Assembly: GCA_017623675.1 (NCBI GenBank)
Contig: JAGAOO010000068.1
Location: forward strand, 1 to 55,195
DNA length: 55,195 nucleotides
DNA from: Lachnospiraceae bacterium
GTDB taxonomy: Bacteria > Bacillota > Clostridia > Lachnospirales > Lachnospiraceae
Direction of reading: 5' to 3'
This document shows, in pieces, positions 8,470 to 32,597 of the stretch. The position numbers and the translations under genes were made by a program. The stretch's first letter is position 1. Each line of letters starts with the position of its first letter. The notes under the pieces are model-generated. The model was not told the origin of the DNA. It saw nothing but the letters and a program-made list of their open reading frames with translations, and made no database searches.

Positions 8470-8752
8470 ATATTTTAGAAATGCAATGACAAGGAGTAGT
8501 AGGACTTAAGAAGTATTCAGAGAGCTGTTGGTGGGTGTGAAACAGTTATGGATTGAGTTTGAACTGGCCTTTGAGCAGCAGGCTGAAATTAGAGTAGGCT
8601 TCGCCGGAACCTGACCGTTACAACAGGAAGATATAAAGCCTAAACTGTATTGACAGGCTCGTATCTGTGAGAGTGCATACGATAAGTATGAATTAGAGTG
8701 GTACCGCGCAAGTTCCTTGCGTCTCTAAGTATGGAGACGCAAGGATTTTCTT
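8470..8752 (+). promoter_or_regulatory. T-box leader, leucine-specific (predicted CUG specifier)
   Basis: The conserved T-box sequence AGAGTGGTACCGCG is at 8695-8708 and is followed by a strong terminator: CCTTGCGTCTC (8715-8725) pairs with GAGACGCAAGG (8734-8744), then ATTTTCTT. Stem I can be folded from AAGG/CCTT below and ACTTAA/TTGAGT above a specifier loop, with AGTAG on the 5' side and GAA-CTG-G on the 3' side. CTG at 8564-8566 would be the specifier codon, reading leucine, which fits the leuA gene downstream. Uncharged tRNA-Leu should stabilise the antiterminator and switch leuA on. Confidence 0.9.
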
Positions 8753-8857: not shown

Positions 8858-10522
8858 ATGAAGAATTATCAGAAGTATCAGCGAGGTTATTTTATGCCAC
8901 CGGTGGAATCTTTAAAATGGACCCACAAGGAGTATATTGATAAGGCACCAATGTGGTGTTCTGTGGATTTACGGGATGGTAATCAGGCATTGATTGTGCC
9001 AATGAGCTTAGAGGAAAAGGTAGAATTTTTCAAGATGCTGGTAAAAATCGGTTTCAAGGAAATTGAAGTTGGATTTCCGGCAGCTTCCGAAACAGAGTAT
9101 ACCTTCTTAAGAACCTTGATTGAAGAAGATTTAATTCCGGATGACGTAACGGTACAGGTGTTGACCCAGTCCAGAGAACATATCATTAAGAAAACCTTTG
9201 AAGCAGTACGGGGCTGTAAAAAGGCAGTCGTACATTTGTATAATTCCACCTCTCTTGCACAACGGGAGCAGGTGTTTAAGAAATCCAAGGAGGAAATTCT
9301 TGAAATTGCGGTTTCCGGGGCAAAGCTTTTGAAGCAGTTAGCAGAAGAGGATGGAGGCAACTTCCAGTTTGAGTATTCGCCGGAAAGCTTCACCGGTACG
9401 GAAGTAGAATATGCATTAGAGGTATGTAATGCAGTCATTGATGTATGGCAGCCTACACCGGAAAAGAAGGTGATTATCAACCTTCCTGCTACAGTTGAGA
9501 TGTCATTACCTCATGTATATGCAAGCCAGATTGAGTACATGAGTGAACATATGAACTGTAGGGAGAATGTGATTCTTTCTCTTCATCCGCATAATGACAG
9601 AGGTTGTGGTGTGGCAGATGCGGAACTTGGCTTACTTGCCGGCGCAGACCGAATTGAAGGAACCTTATTTGGTAACGGTGAACGTACCGGTAATGTAGAT
9701 ATTATTACCTTGGCAATGAACATGTTTACCCATGGTGTAGACCCACAGCTTGATTTAAGCAACATTCCGGAGTTAACAGAGCTTTATGAACGTGTTACCA
9801 GAATGCATGTATATGAGCGTTCACCATATACCGGACAATTGGTATTTGCAGCATTTTCCGGTTCTCATCAGGATGCCATTGCCAAGGGAATGAAATGGAA
9901 GGAAGAGCATAATTTAGACCATTGGAGTGTGCCATATCTTCCGTTAGACCCACAGGATGTTGGCAGAAAGTATGATGGAGATGTCATCCGTATTAACAGT
10001 CAGTCCGGTAAGGGTGGTATCGGATATCTCTTAGAGCAGAAATATGGCTTTGATCTTCCGCCAAAGATGCGAGAAGATTTGGGCTATGCCGTAAAAGATG
10101 TTTCCGACCATATGCACAAGGAGTTGGCACCGAATGAAGTGTTGGATATTTTCCAGAAGACATATGTGAATATTCCTTCTCCAATTGAGTTGTTAGAAGC
10201 ACACTTTACTCAGGGCGAACAGTTCACGGCAGAAATTACCATTAACATTCATGGTGCCAAGAAGGTATATCATGGTCGGGGAAATGGACGTTTGGATGCT
10301 ATTTCCAATGCAGTGAAGAAACATTTTGATATTCAGTTCTCTTTGATTTGCTATGAAGAGCATGCATTACAGGTAGGTTCCAATTCACAGGCGTGTGCCT
10401 ATGTGGGAATTCAGAAGGAAGATGGCAGTGTTTCCTGGGGAGCAGGAATTCAGAATGATATTATTGATGCATCTGCCTATGCTTTAATTAGTGCTATCAA
10501 CCGTTCCGGATTGGTAGAATAA
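8858..10522 (+). CDS. leuA: 2-isopropylmalate synthase (LeuA, long type)
   Basis: A 554-residue cytoplasmic enzyme that condenses acetyl-CoA with 2-oxoisovalerate, the first committed step of leucine synthesis. The TIM-barrel motif VDLRDGNQALIVPMS (about 36-50) carries the metal-binding Asp and the catalytic Arg; H243 and H245 in LHPHNDRG complete the metal site; GNGERTGNVD follows. The last 130 residues form the regulatory LeuA dimer domain (TAEITINIHG...). Length matches the long LeuA type. The start has an AAGGAGG site. Expression is controlled by the leucine T-box just upstream, a strong independent support for the assignment. No leuBCD genes follow. Confidence 0.96.
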   Translation: MKNYQKYQRGYFMPPVESLKWTHKEYIDKAPMWCSVDLRDGNQALIVPMSLEEKVEFFKMLVKIGFKEIEVGFPAASETEYTFLRTLIEEDLIPDDVTVQVLTQSREHIIKKTFEAVRGCKKAVVHLYNSTSLAQREQVFKKSKEEILEIAVSGAKLLKQLAEEDGGNFQFEYSPESFTGTEVEYALEVCNAVIDVWQPTPEKKVIINLPATVEMSLPHVYASQIEYMSEHMNCRENVILSLHPHNDRGCGVADAELGLLAGADRIEGTLFGNGERTGNVDIITLAMNMFTHGVDPQLDLSNIPELTELYERVTRMHVYERSPYTGQLVFAAFSGSHQDAIAKGMKWKEEHNLDHWSVPYLPLDPQDVGRKYDGDVIRINSQSGKGGIGYLLEQKYGFDLPPKMREDLGYAVKDVSDHMHKELAPNEVLDIFQKTYVNIPSPIELLEAHFTQGEQFTAEITINIHGAKKVYHGRGNGRLDAISNAVKKHFDIQFSLICYEEHALQVGSNSQACAYVGIQKEDGSVSWGAGIQNDIIDASAYALISAINRSGLVE

Positions 10523-15907: not shown

Positions 15908-15916
15908 TGCTATAAT
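15908..15916 (+). promoter_or_regulatory. Extended -10 promoter of the sulfation operon
   Basis: TGC followed directly by TATAAT (15911-15916) forms an extended -10 element; no good -35 box lies at the right distance. Transcription would start near 15923, about 90 bases before cysD. Confidence 0.6.
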
Positions 15917-16013
15917 CACTTGGAGTGTATTATGAGACGAAGATATGTAGTGTATACATAAGTCATAAACCATTGAAAAATGTCAGATTATTAAGAATTT
16001 GAGGTACAGGTTC

Positions 16014-16913
16014 ATGAAAACATTATCCCATCTGGATAAACTGGAAGCAGAAGCAATTTATATTATTCGGGAGGTTGCAGCAGAATGTGAAAAGCCGGTG
16101 ATGCTGTATTCCATTGGTAAGGACAGTTCGGTTATGTTGCATTTGGCAATGAAAGCCTTCTATCCGGAAAAACCACCATTTCCATTTATGCACATTGATA
16201 CGACATGGAAATTCCGGGAAATGACGGAATTTCGTGACCGGAAAGCAAAGGAACTGGGAATTGATATGATTGTTTATACCAATGAAGAAGGTGTAAAAGC
16301 AGGAATTAATCCCTTTGACCATGGTTCCTCTTATACGGATATTATGAAAACCCAGGCATTAAAGCAGGGCTTGAATAAATATGGATTCACAGCGGCCTTT
16401 GGCGGAGGACGAAGAGATGAAGAGAAGTCCAGAGCAAAGGAACGGATTTTCTCATTCCGTAATGCTGAGCATGCATGGGACCCGAAGAATCAGAGACCGG
16501 AGATGTGGAAGCTTTATAATACCCAGATTCAAAAGGGAGAAAGTATGCGGGTGTTCCCGTTATCAAACTGGACGGAAAATGATATTTGGCAGTACATATT
16601 GCGTGAAAGAATTGATATTGTATCTCTGTACTTTGCGGCAGAACGGCCGGTGGTTTACCGGGACGGCAACATCATTATGGTAGATGATGACAGAATGCGT
16701 CTGTTACCGGGAGAAGAGGTACAGATGAAAAAAGTTCGGTTCCGTACCCTTGGCTGCTATCCATTAACCGGTGGTGTGGAATCGGATGCAGATACCTTGG
16801 AGGCAATTGTAGAGGAAACTCTGGGAGCAGTGAATTCAGAACGAACCAGCCGGGTAATTGACCACGAAGGGGCCGGCAGCATGGAGCGTAGAAAAAGGGA
16901 AGGATATTTTTAA
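16014..16913 (+). CDS. cysD: Sulfate adenylyltransferase subunit 2 (CysD)
   Basis: A 299-residue cytoplasmic subunit of ATP sulfurylase, which forms adenosine 5'-phosphosulfate (APS) from ATP and sulfate. The ATP-pyrophosphatase loop [10 protein letters not shown] (33-42) is near the N-terminus, followed by [10 protein letters not shown], a [14 protein letters not shown] stretch and the [10 protein letters not shown] motif; all match CysD rather than PAPS reductase. The ATG at 16014 follows a GAGG site; an in-frame TTG at 15999 is less likely. It is the first gene of an apparent operon and is separated from cysNC by one base. The enzyme needs the GTPase subunit encoded next. Confidence 0.95.
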
Positions 16914-16914
16914 G

Positions 16915-18738
16915 ATGAAAGAATTATTGAAGTTTATCACCTGCGGAAGTGTAGATGATGGAAAATCAACATTAATCGGACATATGCTTTACGATTCTAA
17001 GCTGTTATTTGCTGATCAGGAACGGGCACTGGAATTGGAGAGCAAGGTTGGAAGTACCGATGGAAGTCTGGATTATTCTTTGTTATTAGACGGCTTGATG
17101 GCAGAACGGGAACAGGGTATTACCATAGATGTGGCATATCGTTATTTTACTACCTCTAAGAGAAGCTTTATTGTAGCAGATACGCCGGGACATGAGGAAT
17201 ATACCAGAAATATGGCAGTAGGTGCTTCTTTTGCAGATGTAGCAGTGATTCTGTTAGATGCAACGAAAGGTGTGTTGGTGCAGACCAGACGGCATACCAG
17301 AATCTGTTCCCTTATGGGTATTCGTGATTTTGTATTTATTGTAAATAAAATGGATTTGGCAGGATATACGGAAGAAACCTTCCGGAGTATCAAAAAGGAA
17401 TTGGAGCAGTTTATTCAGAATTTTCCATATCACAGTATGACAGTAATTCCGGTTTCTGCAACGATAGGAGATAATATTACGAATCCATCGGAAACTATGA
17501 ATTGGTATCAGGGACCGACCCTGTTGGCTTACTTAGAGGATTTAGAGTTGACCTCCAAGAGCAGTGAAGAAGATTTCATTCTGCCGATACAGCGGGTCAG
17601 CCGTCCAAATCATACCTTCCGTGGTTTTCAAGGACAGGTAGAAGCAGGAAGTCTGCGGCTTGGGGATACAGTTACCGTATATCCAAGCGGAGAGCAGGCA
17701 GCAGTTTCCCGTTTGCTGGCAGCAGGAGAAGAGACAGAAGAAATCGTTGAAGGACAGCCGGTAACCGTATGTCTGGATAAAGAAATTGACTGTTCCAGAG
17801 GCTGTGTCATGGTAAAAGGACGAACACCGGAAGTTGGCAACATGTTCCGGGTAACCATGCTTTGGATGGATGATGTTCCTCTGGTAGAAGGAAAAGAGTA
17901 CATGTTAAAGCTGGGAACGAAAAAAATACCGGCACGAATTGTTAAAATAGAGTATAAGATTGATGTAAATACCGGAGAACAGATACCGGTTACACAGGTG
18001 GAGAAGAACGGAATTGTAGTTTGCAGTGTGTTAACTACAGAAAAGATTGTATTTCGTAAATTTTCGGAAAATGAAGCTTTGGGTGGCCTGATTCTGATTG
18101 ATCGTATTACCAACATGACTTCTGCCTGTGGTGTCATTGAACAGGCATTGAAGCATTTCGATAATCTGACCTGGCAGGATTCCGATGTAACCAAGGAAAT
18201 ACGGGAAAAACGGTTAGGACAGAAGGCAGCAACTCTCTGGTTCACCGGTCTTTCCGGTTCCGGAAAATCAACCCTTGCCAATGCATTGGAGATTCAATTA
18301 ACTGCCATAGGTAAGCACACCATGTTGTTGGATGGTGATAATATCCGCATGGGTCTGAATCGGGACTTAGGCTTTTCGGATGAAGACCGGACAGAGAATA
18401 TTCGGCGGATTGCTGAGGTGGCTAAGCTGATGAATGATGCCGGATTGATAGTGCTTACCTCGTTTATATCACCATTTAAGCAGGATAGAGAACTGGCACG
18501 CTCTATTATTGGTGAGGATTTCGTGGAAATCTATGTAAATACACCGTTAGAAGAGTGTGAACGTCGAGATGTGAAGGGCTTATATAAGAAGGCGAGAAAA
18601 GGCGAGATTCCGGTATTTACCGGAATATCAAGTCCATATGAAGCACCGGAGCAACCGGAAATTCAGATAGACACCAGCAAGTGTTCGGTTGAGGAAGCAA
18701 TGGAACAAGTTATGAAAGCCTTAAAGGACTATATGTAA
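16915..18738 (+). CDS. cysN: Sulfate adenylyltransferase subunit 1 / APS kinase fusion (CysNC)
   Basis: A 607-residue bifunctional protein. Residues 1-430 are an EF-Tu-like GTPase: G1 GSVDDGKS (11-18), G3 DTPGHE (89-94), G4 NKMD (144-147). It drives APS synthesis with CysD. Residues 441-607 are APS kinase: Walker [10 protein letters not shown] (445-453), [16 protein letters not shown] and the FISPF loop. The kinase phosphorylates APS to PAPS, the universal sulfuryl donor. The fused gene therefore carries sulfate all the way to PAPS. The ATG at 16915 is preferred to the GTG-type start at 16858 because a GGGAAGGA site precedes it. Confidence 0.95.
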
Positions 18739-18780
18739 GTATTTCTATCATTCATAGATTGATTTGTGTAAATAGAGGAT

Positions 18781-20226
18781 ATGAATAAGAAGTTTTCAAC
18801 CATGGTACTGTCTATGTTAAAGGTGGGATGTATCGGATTTGGCGGCGGTAGTGCGTTAATTCCGGTATTACATCGGGAGGCGGTACAGGAGAAAAAGTTA
18901 ATAACAGAAGAAGAACTGGATAGTGGTGTAGTTGCCGCCAGTATTACACCGGGAGCATTGCCGGTAGAAATGGCAGCCGGTATTGGTAAGAAAACCAATG
19001 GTACATTGGGAATGTTTGCCGGGGCTACAGCAATGGCGTTGCCGGGGGCGTGTTTTACTACATTGCTTATGATATTTGCATCTTTAGTCGGAGAGAAACT
19101 GACATATCAGATTAATTATGCATCGGTTGGTATTACAGCATATATCATTCTTGTCCTGATAGAATACATTCTTACGACCTTAAAGAAGGCAAAGAATAAC
19201 CGGGGAGGTATGATACAGGCAGCGATTGTGATTCTGGCAGTATGGATGTTCAATGGCGAGCAGAAAGTATTTAAACTGTTAGGAATTCATGACACCCCAA
19301 TCTTTGGTGTTTCGACAGTGGAAATATTTATAGTTGCTTTTTTTGTAATCGTTTGTACAGCAGGGAATTTTAAATCCATTTGGTTTTTGATTTCTGCAAT
19401 TATAAGTATCGTTTTTTTGTTAGTACAAGGAAAATCTCATATTATTGAATCGCCGGTTGTGGCAGGCATTACATTAGCTGCAATGATTATTCTTGTGATT
19501 GTCCGGTTATGTATGAATTTTAGGACAAAGGAAAGATTTTCAAAGGAACAGATGAAAGAAATATCTAAGGAAGTGCTGTTGTGGATTGCCTTTTTGACTG
19601 CCTTTTGTCTGCCGGCACTTATAGCAGCCCCACGGTCCATATTGTTTATTGGACAAGGTTTGCTTTCTGCATTAATGTCTTTTGGAGGAGGAGATGCATA
19701 TCTTTCGGTTGCACAGGGATTATTTGTGGATTCCGGCATGATTTCTTCAGAAGTATTTTATGGAAATGTAGTAACCATTGCCAACATTTTACCGGGCTCA
19801 ATTCTGTGTAAAGTATTAAGTGGTATTGGTTATAGTTGGGGTGTTAATCGCACCGGAACTGTTTTGGGAGGAATTTGCGTTGCCTTAGCAGGCTTTGCCA
19901 GCGCCACGGCAGCTTCCTGTGCAGTATTTGGTGTAGTAAAGATTTTATATGATAAGTGGAAAAAGATGGAAATATTCCGGGCAATGAATGATTTGATTCG
20001 TCCCATTGTGTCAGGCCTGCTCATCAGCGTTGGGATTTCTTTGTTTAATACCAATTGTACCATTGAGGCAGCTGCAGGCTGGGAATGGGGGAGTGTTGCG
20101 TTACTAATGCTTTTGATTGCCGGAATTATCATATTTATGCAAAAGAAGAAGGTACACATGGTTTGGCAGGTATTGTCGGCACTTGTCATATCACTAATAG
20201 GCTGTAACGTATTTAATATTATTTAA
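18781..20226 (+). CDS. CHR-family (ChrA) anion transporter
   Basis: A 481-residue membrane protein with the two homologous halves of the CHR family: the first carries IGFGGGSALIPVLHREAV (about 18-35), the second SFGGGDAYLSVAQGLFV. About ten hydrophobic spans are visible. Known members export chromate or exchange it with sulfate. Here the gene sits between sulfate-activation genes and a sulfotransferase with a 42-base gap, so sulfate transport for PAPS synthesis is a reasonable inference; chromate resistance is the alternative. The ribosome-binding site (GAGG) is only two bases from the ATG at 18781; an ATG at 18802 is also possible. Confidence 0.87.
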   Translation: MNKKFSTMVLSMLKVGCIGFGGGSALIPVLHREAVQEKKLITEEELDSGVVAASITPGALPVEMAAGIGKKTNGTLGMFAGATAMALPGACFTTLLMIFASLVGEKLTYQINYASVGITAYIILVLIEYILTTLKKAKNNRGGMIQAAIVILAVWMFNGEQKVFKLLGIHDTPIFGVSTVEIFIVAFFVIVCTAGNFKSIWFLISAIISIVFLLVQGKSHIIESPVVAGITLAAMIILVIVRLCMNFRTKERFSKEQMKEISKEVLLWIAFLTAFCLPALIAAPRSILFIGQGLLSALMSFGGGDAYLSVAQGLFVDSGMISSEVFYGNVVTIANILPGSILCKVLSGIGYSWGVNRTGTVLGGICVALAGFASATAASCAVFGVVKILYDKWKKMEIFRAMNDLIRPIVSGLLISVGISLFNTNCTIEAAAGWEWGSVALLMLLIAGIIIFMQKKKVHMVWQVLSALVISLIGCNVFNII

Positions 20227-20243
20227 GGTGAAGGAGATTAGCT

Positions 20244-21371
20244 ATGAAAAAGAAACCGGTAGATTTTGGACATATGTTGAGTGGTATCCGTTTGGATGTA
20301 TGGTTAAAGCTGTTACGGGAAAATAAGATTGACAAGGAATACTATCCACAAGCGGCTGTTATTACATTGGAAAGTGCGTTGCTGACACCGTTGGCATTGT
20401 TAGAGTATTTGATATACTGGATACCAATCCATGCTACAAAGATTAAGAAAGATCCAATTTACGTTGTTGGATTCTGGAGAAGTGGAACCACCTATTTGCA
20501 GAACCTGTTGACACGTGATCCCCAGTTTGGATGGTTAGATCCTGTCAGCACCATTACTTTCGGTAATTGTATATTACTTCGAAAGCCATTAACTGCACTT
20601 GCAAAGGACGGCTTGAAGGGTGCCAGAGCTATGGACAATTTGGAATTTGAACTGGATTTACCTATGGAGGAAGCACATGCTTTTACCAACTTGACCGATT
20701 TATCTGTTAGTCATATGATGGCATTCCCGGATCATGGAAAGGGTGGAAAATATGTGAATACCATTTTTACAGATAGCCTTTCCAGCAAGGATCGGAGACG
20801 ATTCTACAACACTTATAATTATTTGTTAAAGAAAATCACTTATATCAAGGGTGGAAAACAGTTATTGTTAAAGAGTCCGGATAATACGGCACGAATTGCA
20901 TTTTTGAAGCGGGCATATCCGAAGGCAAAGTTTATTAATATCTACCGGAATCCATATACGGTGGTTCGTTCTGCCTTGAATATGTTCCGAATTGAAATGG
21001 ATAAATATGCATTATCAGAAAGTGTCAGTGACCAGTATTTGTTAGACCGTGTATGCCTGATTTTTGAACGGGTGTATCGTCGGGCATTTCGGGATTTGGA
21101 CAACCTGGGTGAATGCGATAAGATAGAAATTAAATACGAGGACTTTATTGAACATCAGGAAGAATATCTGGAAAAGATATATCAAAAGCTGGGCATTAAG
21201 GATTATGATAAGGCATATCCATATTTTAAGGAGTATATGGACAGTATGAAGGATTATCAGACTAATACCTATGATTATGCACCGGAATTGATTGAGAAGG
21301 TGAATGAACGGCTGGGCTTCTACTTTGAACGGTATGGATACGAAATGATTCAGCCGGATTATTCAAAGTAA
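20244..21371 (+). CDS. PAPS-dependent sulfotransferase
   Basis: A 375-residue sulfotransferase, which moves the sulfuryl group of PAPS to a hydroxyl or amine. The 5'-phosphosulfate loop GFWRSGTTYL is at residues 76-85, and the 3'-phosphate motif NIYRNPYTVVRSA at 232-244, both intact. A hydrophobic stretch near 40-62 may help it meet a membrane or lipophilic acceptor. It begins 17 bases after chrA with a GAAGGAG site. The acceptor cannot be read from sequence; steroids, bile acids, lipids, glycans and secondary metabolites are all possible. It is the only gene in the operon that consumes the PAPS made by the first two. Confidence 0.9.
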   Translation: MKKKPVDFGHMLSGIRLDVWLKLLRENKIDKEYYPQAAVITLESALLTPLALLEYLIYWIPIHATKIKKDPIYVVGFWRSGTTYLQNLLTRDPQFGWLDPVSTITFGNCILLRKPLTALAKDGLKGARAMDNLEFELDLPMEEAHAFTNLTDLSVSHMMAFPDHGKGGKYVNTIFTDSLSSKDRRRFYNTYNYLLKKITYIKGGKQLLLKSPDNTARIAFLKRAYPKAKFINIYRNPYTVVRSALNMFRIEMDKYALSESVSDQYLLDRVCLIFERVYRRAFRDLDNLGECDKIEIKYEDFIEHQEEYLEKIYQKLGIKDYDKAYPYFKEYMDSMKDYQTNTYDYAPELIEKVNERLGFYFERYGYEMIQPDYSK

Positions 21372-21379
21372 TAAAAATG

Positions 21380-21540
21380 CTAAGGATAATCCTTTGCTTC
21401 TTCAACATAGTCAATATTCATCCGGGGAGCGGAAAGAATCTGTTCCTCGGATATTTTTATGCCTGTGTCTGCAATATAGAAGTTTCCACCCTTAGCTAGT
21501 AATAAAGTGACAAAATCTGTTTCCGGTGCAGATTGCAATT
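21380..21540 (-). pseudogene. Possible decayed coding remnant, unknown
   Basis: On the minus strand a frame closes at a TAG (complement of 21380-21382). It reads protein-like text such as AKGGNFYIADTGIKISEEQI and ends IDYVEEAKDYP, but no convincing start codon or ribosome-binding site exists before it runs into the antisense of the next gene. I do not recognise a family; it may also be chance. Confidence 0.3.
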
Positions 21541-32370: not shown

Positions 32371-32597
32371 TGCTGTGACATTGATAGCGTTGAAGCGTGA
32401 GGTTGCTGCACGAAGGTTGCAGGTTTTTCCGTGGAGCGAATGTCAAGTTAGGAAACTGGCGACAAGTCACTGTACGATATAAACCATCTACTAGAAAGTA
32501 GAAATGACGTGTGAGAATAAAAAAGAAACACACGGGAATGTGTACAGTCACCACTTGTCGTACTGAAATTAAGTGCGAAAAGGAGGCGGCTTTTTTT
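32371..32597 (+). promoter_or_regulatory. Structured leader of the S10 operon
   Basis: This leader has several nested helices. TGACATT (32376-32382) pairs with AATGTCA (32439-32445). A long closing stem joins 32459-32467 to 32553-32561 (with GACAAGT/ACTTGTC) and 32469-32475 to 32542-32548 (ACTGTAC/GTACAGT). Inside it are two hairpins: TCTACT-AGAA-AGTAGA (32487-32502) and CGTGTG/CACACG (32508-32513 and 32529-32534). No terminator is evident, so control would probably act on translation. By analogy with the L4 control of the S10 operon in Escherichia coli it is a candidate autoregulatory element. Confidence 0.7.

What the first reader, a model, noticed from the sequence alone, without database searches (positions are those of the whole stretch)
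15908..21371. Compact sulfation operon: cysD, cysNC, CHR transporter and sulfotransferase
Four same-strand genes with gaps of 1, 42 and 17 bases follow one extended -10 promoter. They encode every step from sulfate to a sulfated product: ATP sulfurylase (CysD plus CysN), APS kinase (CysC domain), a candidate sulfate carrier and a PAPS-using sulfotransferase with both binding motifs intact. No APS reductase, PAPS reductase or sulfite reductase is in the window. Comparable clusters making sulfated steroids are known in gut Bacteroides; a Firmicute version with a CHR transporter would be of interest. That the product is an exported sulfated lipid, steroid or glycan is inference.
Basis: partly seen in the sequence, partly recalled or inferred. 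Interest (0 to 1): 0.82.

Follow-up and report, generated by a model that had tools for sequence, protein, structure and literature searches.

The report
Gut Lachnospiraceae sulfation operon, acceptor unknown
A gut Clostridium relative carries a compact four-gene operon that should turn sulfate into activated sulfate and attach it to a still unknown, probably fat-soluble molecule; it resembles the known cholesterol-sulfating cluster of gut Bacteroides but uses a differently branched enzyme and a different transporter.

The parts
15908..15916 (+). extended -10 box TGCTATAAT, probable promoter of the operon
   Evidence: sequence; TGnTATAAT in 4 of 6 aligned genus loci; not listed by the consensus scan, which needs a -35
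16014..16913 (+). cysD, ATP sulfurylase small subunit (299 aa; the ORF extends to TTG 15999)
16915..18738 (+). cysNC, ATP sulfurylase GTPase subunit fused to APS kinase (607 aa; the ORF extends to TTG 16858)
18781..20226 (+). two-domain CHR-family (PF02417) membrane transporter, candidate sulfate importer (481 aa)
   Evidence: in the operon in 5 of 7 genus loci
20244..21371 (+). PAPS-dependent sulfotransferase, PF13469, STF9/STF1-like fold (375 aa); 5'-PSB WRSGTT at residue 78, 3'-PB region from residue 208 (LLKSPDNTARI) to NIYRNPYTVVRSA, invariant E142
21420..21452 (+). intrinsic terminator after the operon

Best explanation
A dedicated sulfation operon. Sulfate enters the cell (probably partly through the CHR protein), CysD with the CysN domain makes APS, the CysC domain makes PAPS, and the STF-type sulfotransferase moves the sulfuryl group to a hydroxyl on an acceptor. 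The ST superfamily leans to lipophilic acceptors and the operon has no acceptor-making gene, so the acceptor is most likely either a sterol, terpenoid or other lipid met in the gut or an ordinary lipid of the cell itself. Shown here by sequence: gene content, order, intact motifs, predicted fold, absence of the reduction branch in the held genome, conserved linkage. Inferred: cotranscription, direction and substrate of CHR, catalytic role of E142, lipophilic acceptor, and PAP clearance by the unlinked PF00459 phosphatase.
Against: CHR is absent from the operon in L004 and L005, and G106 (99% complete) has no CHR, no SulP and no TIGR00969 permease over cut-off, so CHR is dispensable for the pathway. 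The own genome also has a SulP. In the homologue-bearing genomes read outside the genus, other than the two of g22, the ST is not next to cysDN as far as the contigs reach, and 4 of 6 ST-bearing family genomes outside the genus have a PF01077 protein. PF00459 (CysQ type) is in only 2 of 8 ST-bearing genomes, the own one among them, so PAP clearance by it is not general. No biochemical evidence; the acceptor is unknown. Apr genes were not searched for. The genome is 94% complete, so an absent gene may be a gap.
Confidence: 0.76

Rival explanations
1. The acceptor is a cell-envelope glycolipid or polymer of the bacterium, and sulfation is a surface modification, not a transformation of host or diet sterols. 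(A narrower version of the best explanation.)
For: Best fold matches are the mycobacterial STF9 and STF1; the ST is in all 4 genus genomes that are at least 90% complete, as expected for an own-cell function; the most hydrophobic stretch of the ST begins at residue 39, in a long predicted helix 31-64.
Against: No glycosyltransferase, lipid or polymer gene in the operon or among the conserved neighbours tested (feoB, aim24, M24 peptidase, trkA, trkH). What STF9 and STF1 act on was not looked up.
Confidence: 0.35
2. A BtSULT-like sterol sulfonation operon: the ST sulfates cholesterol or other flat steroids as BT_0416 does. (Another narrower version.)
For: Same ST superfamily (28% over 344 and 373 residues; 48 of 375 window residues invariant in 13 Lachnospiraceae and Bacteroidales members) and the same gene-cluster logic.
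Against: Separate clades; Gloeothece, Persicobacter, Aureibacter and A. brasilense proteins score higher against the window ST (154-183 bits) than the three Bacteroidales ones do (122-137); residue 157 is H in the window clade and N in the Bacteroidales clade.
Confidence: 0.2
3. The operon is a remnant or variant of assimilatory sulfate reduction, with PAPS going to cysteine, and the ST is a passenger.
For: cysD/cysN belong to assimilation in many bacteria (established knowledge); 4 of 6 ST-bearing family genomes outside the genus have a PF01077 protein.
Against: No CysH and no sulfite reductase domain in the own genome; 0 of 6 other ST-bearing genus genomes have PF01077; ST linkage is conserved.
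Confidence: 0.04
4. CHR is a chromate or oxyanion efflux pump that happens to be in the operon and plays no part in sulfation.
For: Family name; absent from the operon in 2 of 7 genus loci.
Against: The three NCBIfam chromate-efflux models score far under cut-off (66.5 against 171.7; 59.2 and 54.4 against 250). CHR lies in the same co-directional run in 7 of 39 other Lachnospiraceae cysD-cysNC loci, from 6 genera: 4 with a PAPS-type ST, 2 with an arylsulfotransferase-cluster gene, 1 with neither.
Confidence: 0.25

Closest known systems
BT_0411-BT_0416 cholesterol/steroid sulfonation cluster of Bacteroides (PMC9417993; passages seen)
   Same: Linked APS kinase, CysD, CysN and a homologous sulfotransferase as last gene, with a transporter beside them (compared through the B. 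finegoldii and P. distasonis clusters of that layout).
   Different: Here CysN and CysC are fused, CHR replaces the SLC13 permease, cysQ is not linked, and the ST is in a separate clade at 28% identity with H in place of N at position 157.
Mycobacterial STF9 (2z6v) and STF1 (2zq5) sulfotransferases
   Different: 14-19% identity. Their gene neighbourhood and substrates were not examined.
Other Lachnospiraceae cysD-cysNC units with a different sulfotransferase (for example L064)
   Same: L064 has cysD-cysNC-CHR-ST in the same order.
   Different: The ST belongs to another family (cluster C2), without Pfam or NCBIfam match.
CHR/ChrA chromate transporters (PF02417)
   Same: PF02417 in two stretches.
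   Different: Far below the chromate-efflux cut-offs of NCBIfam.

Membership tests
Bacteroidales PAPS-sulfotransferase cluster (BT_0411-0416 type) | ATP sulfurylase plus APS kinase genes linked to a sulfotransferase | tested here: met
   cysD, cysNC and ST in one unit
Bacteroidales PAPS-sulfotransferase cluster (BT_0411-0416 type) | SLC13 sulfate permease in the cluster | tested here: not met
   CHR instead; SLC13 seen in L155 and L156
Bacteroidales PAPS-sulfotransferase cluster (BT_0411-0416 type) | cysQ in the cluster | tested here: not met
   The only PF00459 match of the genome is on contig C33, the window on C83
Bacteroidales PAPS-sulfotransferase cluster (BT_0411-0416 type) | ST in the Bacteroidales ST clade | tested here: not met
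   Homologous but in a separate clade. BT_0416 itself was not in hand; B. finegoldii, P. distasonis, P. massiliensis, B. fragilis and other Bacteroidales proteins stood in for it
Bacteroidales PAPS-sulfotransferase cluster (BT_0411-0416 type) | sulfation of cholesterol or related steroids | not testable with these tools
   needs an enzyme assay
PF13469 (Sulfotransfer_3) | score over the gathering cut-off | tested here: met
   119.9 against 27 bits
STF9/STF1-type sulfotransferase fold | whole-chain structural match clearly above other sulfotransferases | tested here: met
SULT1/SULT2 cytosolic sulfotransferases (PF00685) | PF00685 over cut-off | tested here: not met
Chromate efflux transporters (TIGR00937, NF053759, NF053760) | score over the curated cut-off | tested here: not met
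   66.5/171.7, 59.2/250, 54.4/250
CHR family PF02417 | PF02417 over cut-off | tested here: met
   133.1 against 28.6 bits
Assimilatory sulfate reduction operon | CysH (PF01507 other than CysD) in the genome | tested here: not met
   only CysD matches; genome 94% complete
Assimilatory sulfate reduction operon | sulfite reductase (PF01077) in the genome | tested here: not met
   0 matches; the control rings in 11 of 14 named genomes
Dissimilatory/assimilatory APS reductase pathway | aprA/aprB in the genome | not tested

The most novel reading that the evidence does not exclude
Lachnospiraceae own a modular sulfation cassette (cysD-cysNC, in some genera with CHR as a dedicated sulfate importer) that is plugged into different sulfotransferases. 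In this genus it drives a new STF-type clade that sulfates gut sterols or membrane lipids, reached separately from the Bacteroides BtSULT cluster; in other genera it drives a large, so far unmodelled glycan-type sulfotransferase family.
Probability: 0.3. Interest if true: 0.72.

Novelty: new variant of a known kind. Interest (0 to 1): 0.5.

Why it matters
In the papers seen here PAPS-dependent sulfation by gut bacteria is shown for Bacteroides (PMC9417993, PMC11271093) and reported by BLAST to be spread over gut genera, mostly Bacteroides and Parabacteroides (PMC10932419; passages only for all three). A self-contained PAPS-plus-sulfotransferase unit that seems core to a genus of Lachnospiraceae would add a second lineage able to conjugate gut metabolites or decorate its own surface, and gives a direct bench test. 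CHR next to PAPS genes and sulfotransferases in several genera also gives a testable function (sulfate uptake) for a family whose models here are named for chromate efflux.

Tried and rejected
Transfer of BtSULT specificity: rejected, because the tree puts the two STs in separate groups and several non-Bacteroidales STs score higher. Several long branches in that tree are flagged as unsure (Chloroflexota, Palleronia, both Azospirillum, Gloeothece, P0117), and the 19-row group that holds the window has support 89/99, under the tool's star; the Bacteroidales clade (100/100), its wider 13-row group (97/95) and the genus clade (100/100) are starred.

CHR as the only sulfate entry: rejected, as the own genome has a SulP and G106 lacks CHR and SulP. 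TIGR00969 gave no permease over cut-off in G000 or G106; SLC13, CysZ, CysP and TSUP families were not searched.

Acceptor from gene neighbourhood: led nowhere. Genes tested beside unlinked homologues are DUF4317, transglutaminase, citrate synthase, Ni-insertion protein, SpoU methylase, GAPDH, DNA polymerase III delta and ABC-transporter parts.

Literature: eight searches listed no paper that by title or abstract start deals with this operon; each listed only 2 to 20 papers of the hits, and the library lacks most subscription papers. The BtSULT paper of Yao et al. 2022 is not held and is known to me only by recall; nothing is taken from it. PMC10932419 reports a wide spread of BT_0416-like proteins in gut genera (passages), so a Firmicute hit may already be in its supplement, which I could not open.

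Full report
What is there. The four genes lie at 16014-16913 (cysD), 16915-18738 (cysNC), 18781-20226 (CHR) and 20244-21371 (ST), all on the + strand. NCBIfam names the first two well above cut-off as CysD and as the bifunctional CysN/APS kinase; Pfam names the others Chromate_transp and Sulfotransfer_3. The ORF caller starts cysD at TTG 15999 and cysNC at TTG 16858; the ATG codons at 16014 and 16915 are better: ATGAAA at 16014 is kept in 6 of 6 aligned genus loci with GAGG in front. The extended -10 (15908-15916) is kept in 4 of 6 of these loci; a strong hairpin with T run follows the ST. Cotranscription is therefore likely but unmeasured.

What PAPS is for. In the held genome (2.8 Mb, 84 contigs, 93.8% complete) the only PF01507 protein is this CysD, no PF01077 protein was found, and the ST is the only PF13469 protein. 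The other six ST-bearing genomes of the genus also lack PF01077 (0 of 6). Outside the genus this is not general: 4 of 6 ST-bearing family genomes have a PF01077 protein, of a type I did not resolve. So in this genus PAPS has one visible use, the ST. Apr genes were not searched. A PF00459 phosphatase (CysQ type) is in the own genome but in only 2 of the 8 ST-bearing genomes tested.

Conservation. The ST is in 7 of 8 genus genomes; the one without is 67% complete. Of 397 family genomes 9 match, 8 of them strongly. Full-length APS kinase (99 bits or more) is in 52 of 397 genomes, among them all 8 with a strong ST match; in 4 of these 8 (G103, G159, G309, G395) the kinase is on another contig than the ST (Fisher p 5e-8 without correction for relatedness). 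In the genus, cysD, cysNC and ST stand together in the window and in L003, L004, L005, L006 and L008; the contig of L007 ends inside CHR. CHR is there in 5 of 7 (window, L003, L006, L007, L008) and missing in 2 (L004, L005) (L023 from G106 appears to be the same contig as L004). In two genomes of genus g22 the order is ST-cysD-cysNC with a cysD 36-37% and a cysNC 40-45% identical to the window's: the pairing was either made twice or kept while the partner genes were swapped. In the other homologue-bearing loci read (L009-L013, L024, L027-L029, and 11 from other families) the ST is not beside cysDN as far as the contigs reach.

Relation to the Bacteroides cluster. A tblastn of plasmid records found the superfamily in 38 records, three of them Bacteroidales. 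In P. distasonis and B. finegoldii it ends a run cysQ-SLC13 permease-cysC-cysD-cysN-ST; the third record, P. massiliensis, is unannotated. This is the layout described for BT_0411-BT_0416, where BT_0416 makes cholesterol sulfate (PMC9417993, passages); that these STs are orthologues of BT_0416 is inferred from layout and genus. The window ST aligns with them over 344 and 373 residues at 28%. In the tree the seven Bacteroidales STs form one clade (100/100) next to Aureibacter and Persicobacter, and the window lies with its genus (100/100) on another branch. So the two operons share logic and enzyme superfamily, not a recent ancestor, and the substrate cannot be copied over. Homologues in A. oryzae and Palleronia sit beside crtI, crtI, an acyltransferase and GT2, and one in Gloeothece near a polyketide synthase, but those in Aureibacter and the Chloroflexota plasmid show no lipid genes. 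Together with the sterol case this leans to lipophilic acceptors.

The transporter. CHR scores far under the chromate-efflux models. I fetched all 51 further regions of the family around APS-kinase hits over 64 bits; 39 hold a complete cysD-cysNC pair by my clustering, and 12 were left out as truncated, split or free-standing APS kinases. In the same co-directional run (gaps up to 300 bases) 17 of 39 have a PAPS-type ST (12 of cluster C2, 5 of cluster C10), 6 have an arylsulfotransferase-cluster gene (a PAPS-independent type), 7 have CHR (4 with C2 or C10, 2 with the arylsulfotransferase, 1 with neither), 8 a CysQ-like gene, 3 an ABC permease of probable sulfate type; 0 of 39 have the window's ST family. 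The C10 label rests on Pfam for two members, the arylsulfotransferase, CysQ and ABC labels on one each. L064 has the window's exact order with a C2 ST. This supports a sulfate-linked role for CHR, most simply import. Against it as sole importer: the own genome has a SulP on contig C67, and G106 does without CHR and SulP.

Verdict. Real, coherent, conserved, and a Lachnospiraceae counterpart of a known Bacteroides system with its own enzyme clade and transporter. The open question, the acceptor, is directly testable. I rate interest 0.5. On re-checking, confidence in the best explanation was lowered slightly (0.78 to 0.76) for the patchy PF00459 result.

Noticed in passing
L064:4612-5766 (-) and 13 further members in L060, L062, L063, L066, L069, L075, L081, L084, L089, L096, L100: A family of about 385 aa near cysD-cysNC, without Pfam or NCBIfam match, is predicted to fold as a PAPS sulfotransferase closest to heparan sulfate N- and 3-O-sulfotransferases.
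   Followed up: partly
L079, L086, L087, L090, L102, L103 (same run) and L071 (opposite strand): Arylsulfotransferase-cluster genes (PF05935 shown for the L071 member) lie next to cysD-cysNC in several Lachnospiraceae, although that enzyme type does not use PAPS; why they sit together is unexplained.
   Followed up: no
L170:1-4885, L169:1-4915: Homologous STs of Azospirillum oryzae and Palleronia end a crtI-crtI-acyltransferase-GT2 run, suggesting sulfated carotenoid glycolipids.
   Followed up: no
L004:5270-7030: A Schlafen/AlbA-type gene (PF04326) lies between aim24 and cysD in this genus member, which also lacks CHR.
   Followed up: no
window 8477-8729: T-box leader (129 bits) in front of a 2-isopropylmalate synthase gene (8858-10522).
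   Followed up: no
window 32382-32465: S10-Clostridia ribosomal protein leader (90.4 bits).
   Followed up: no
G000 contig C67:25349-26443: A SulP-type permease (291 bits) elsewhere in the genome, a second candidate for sulfate entry.
   Followed up: no
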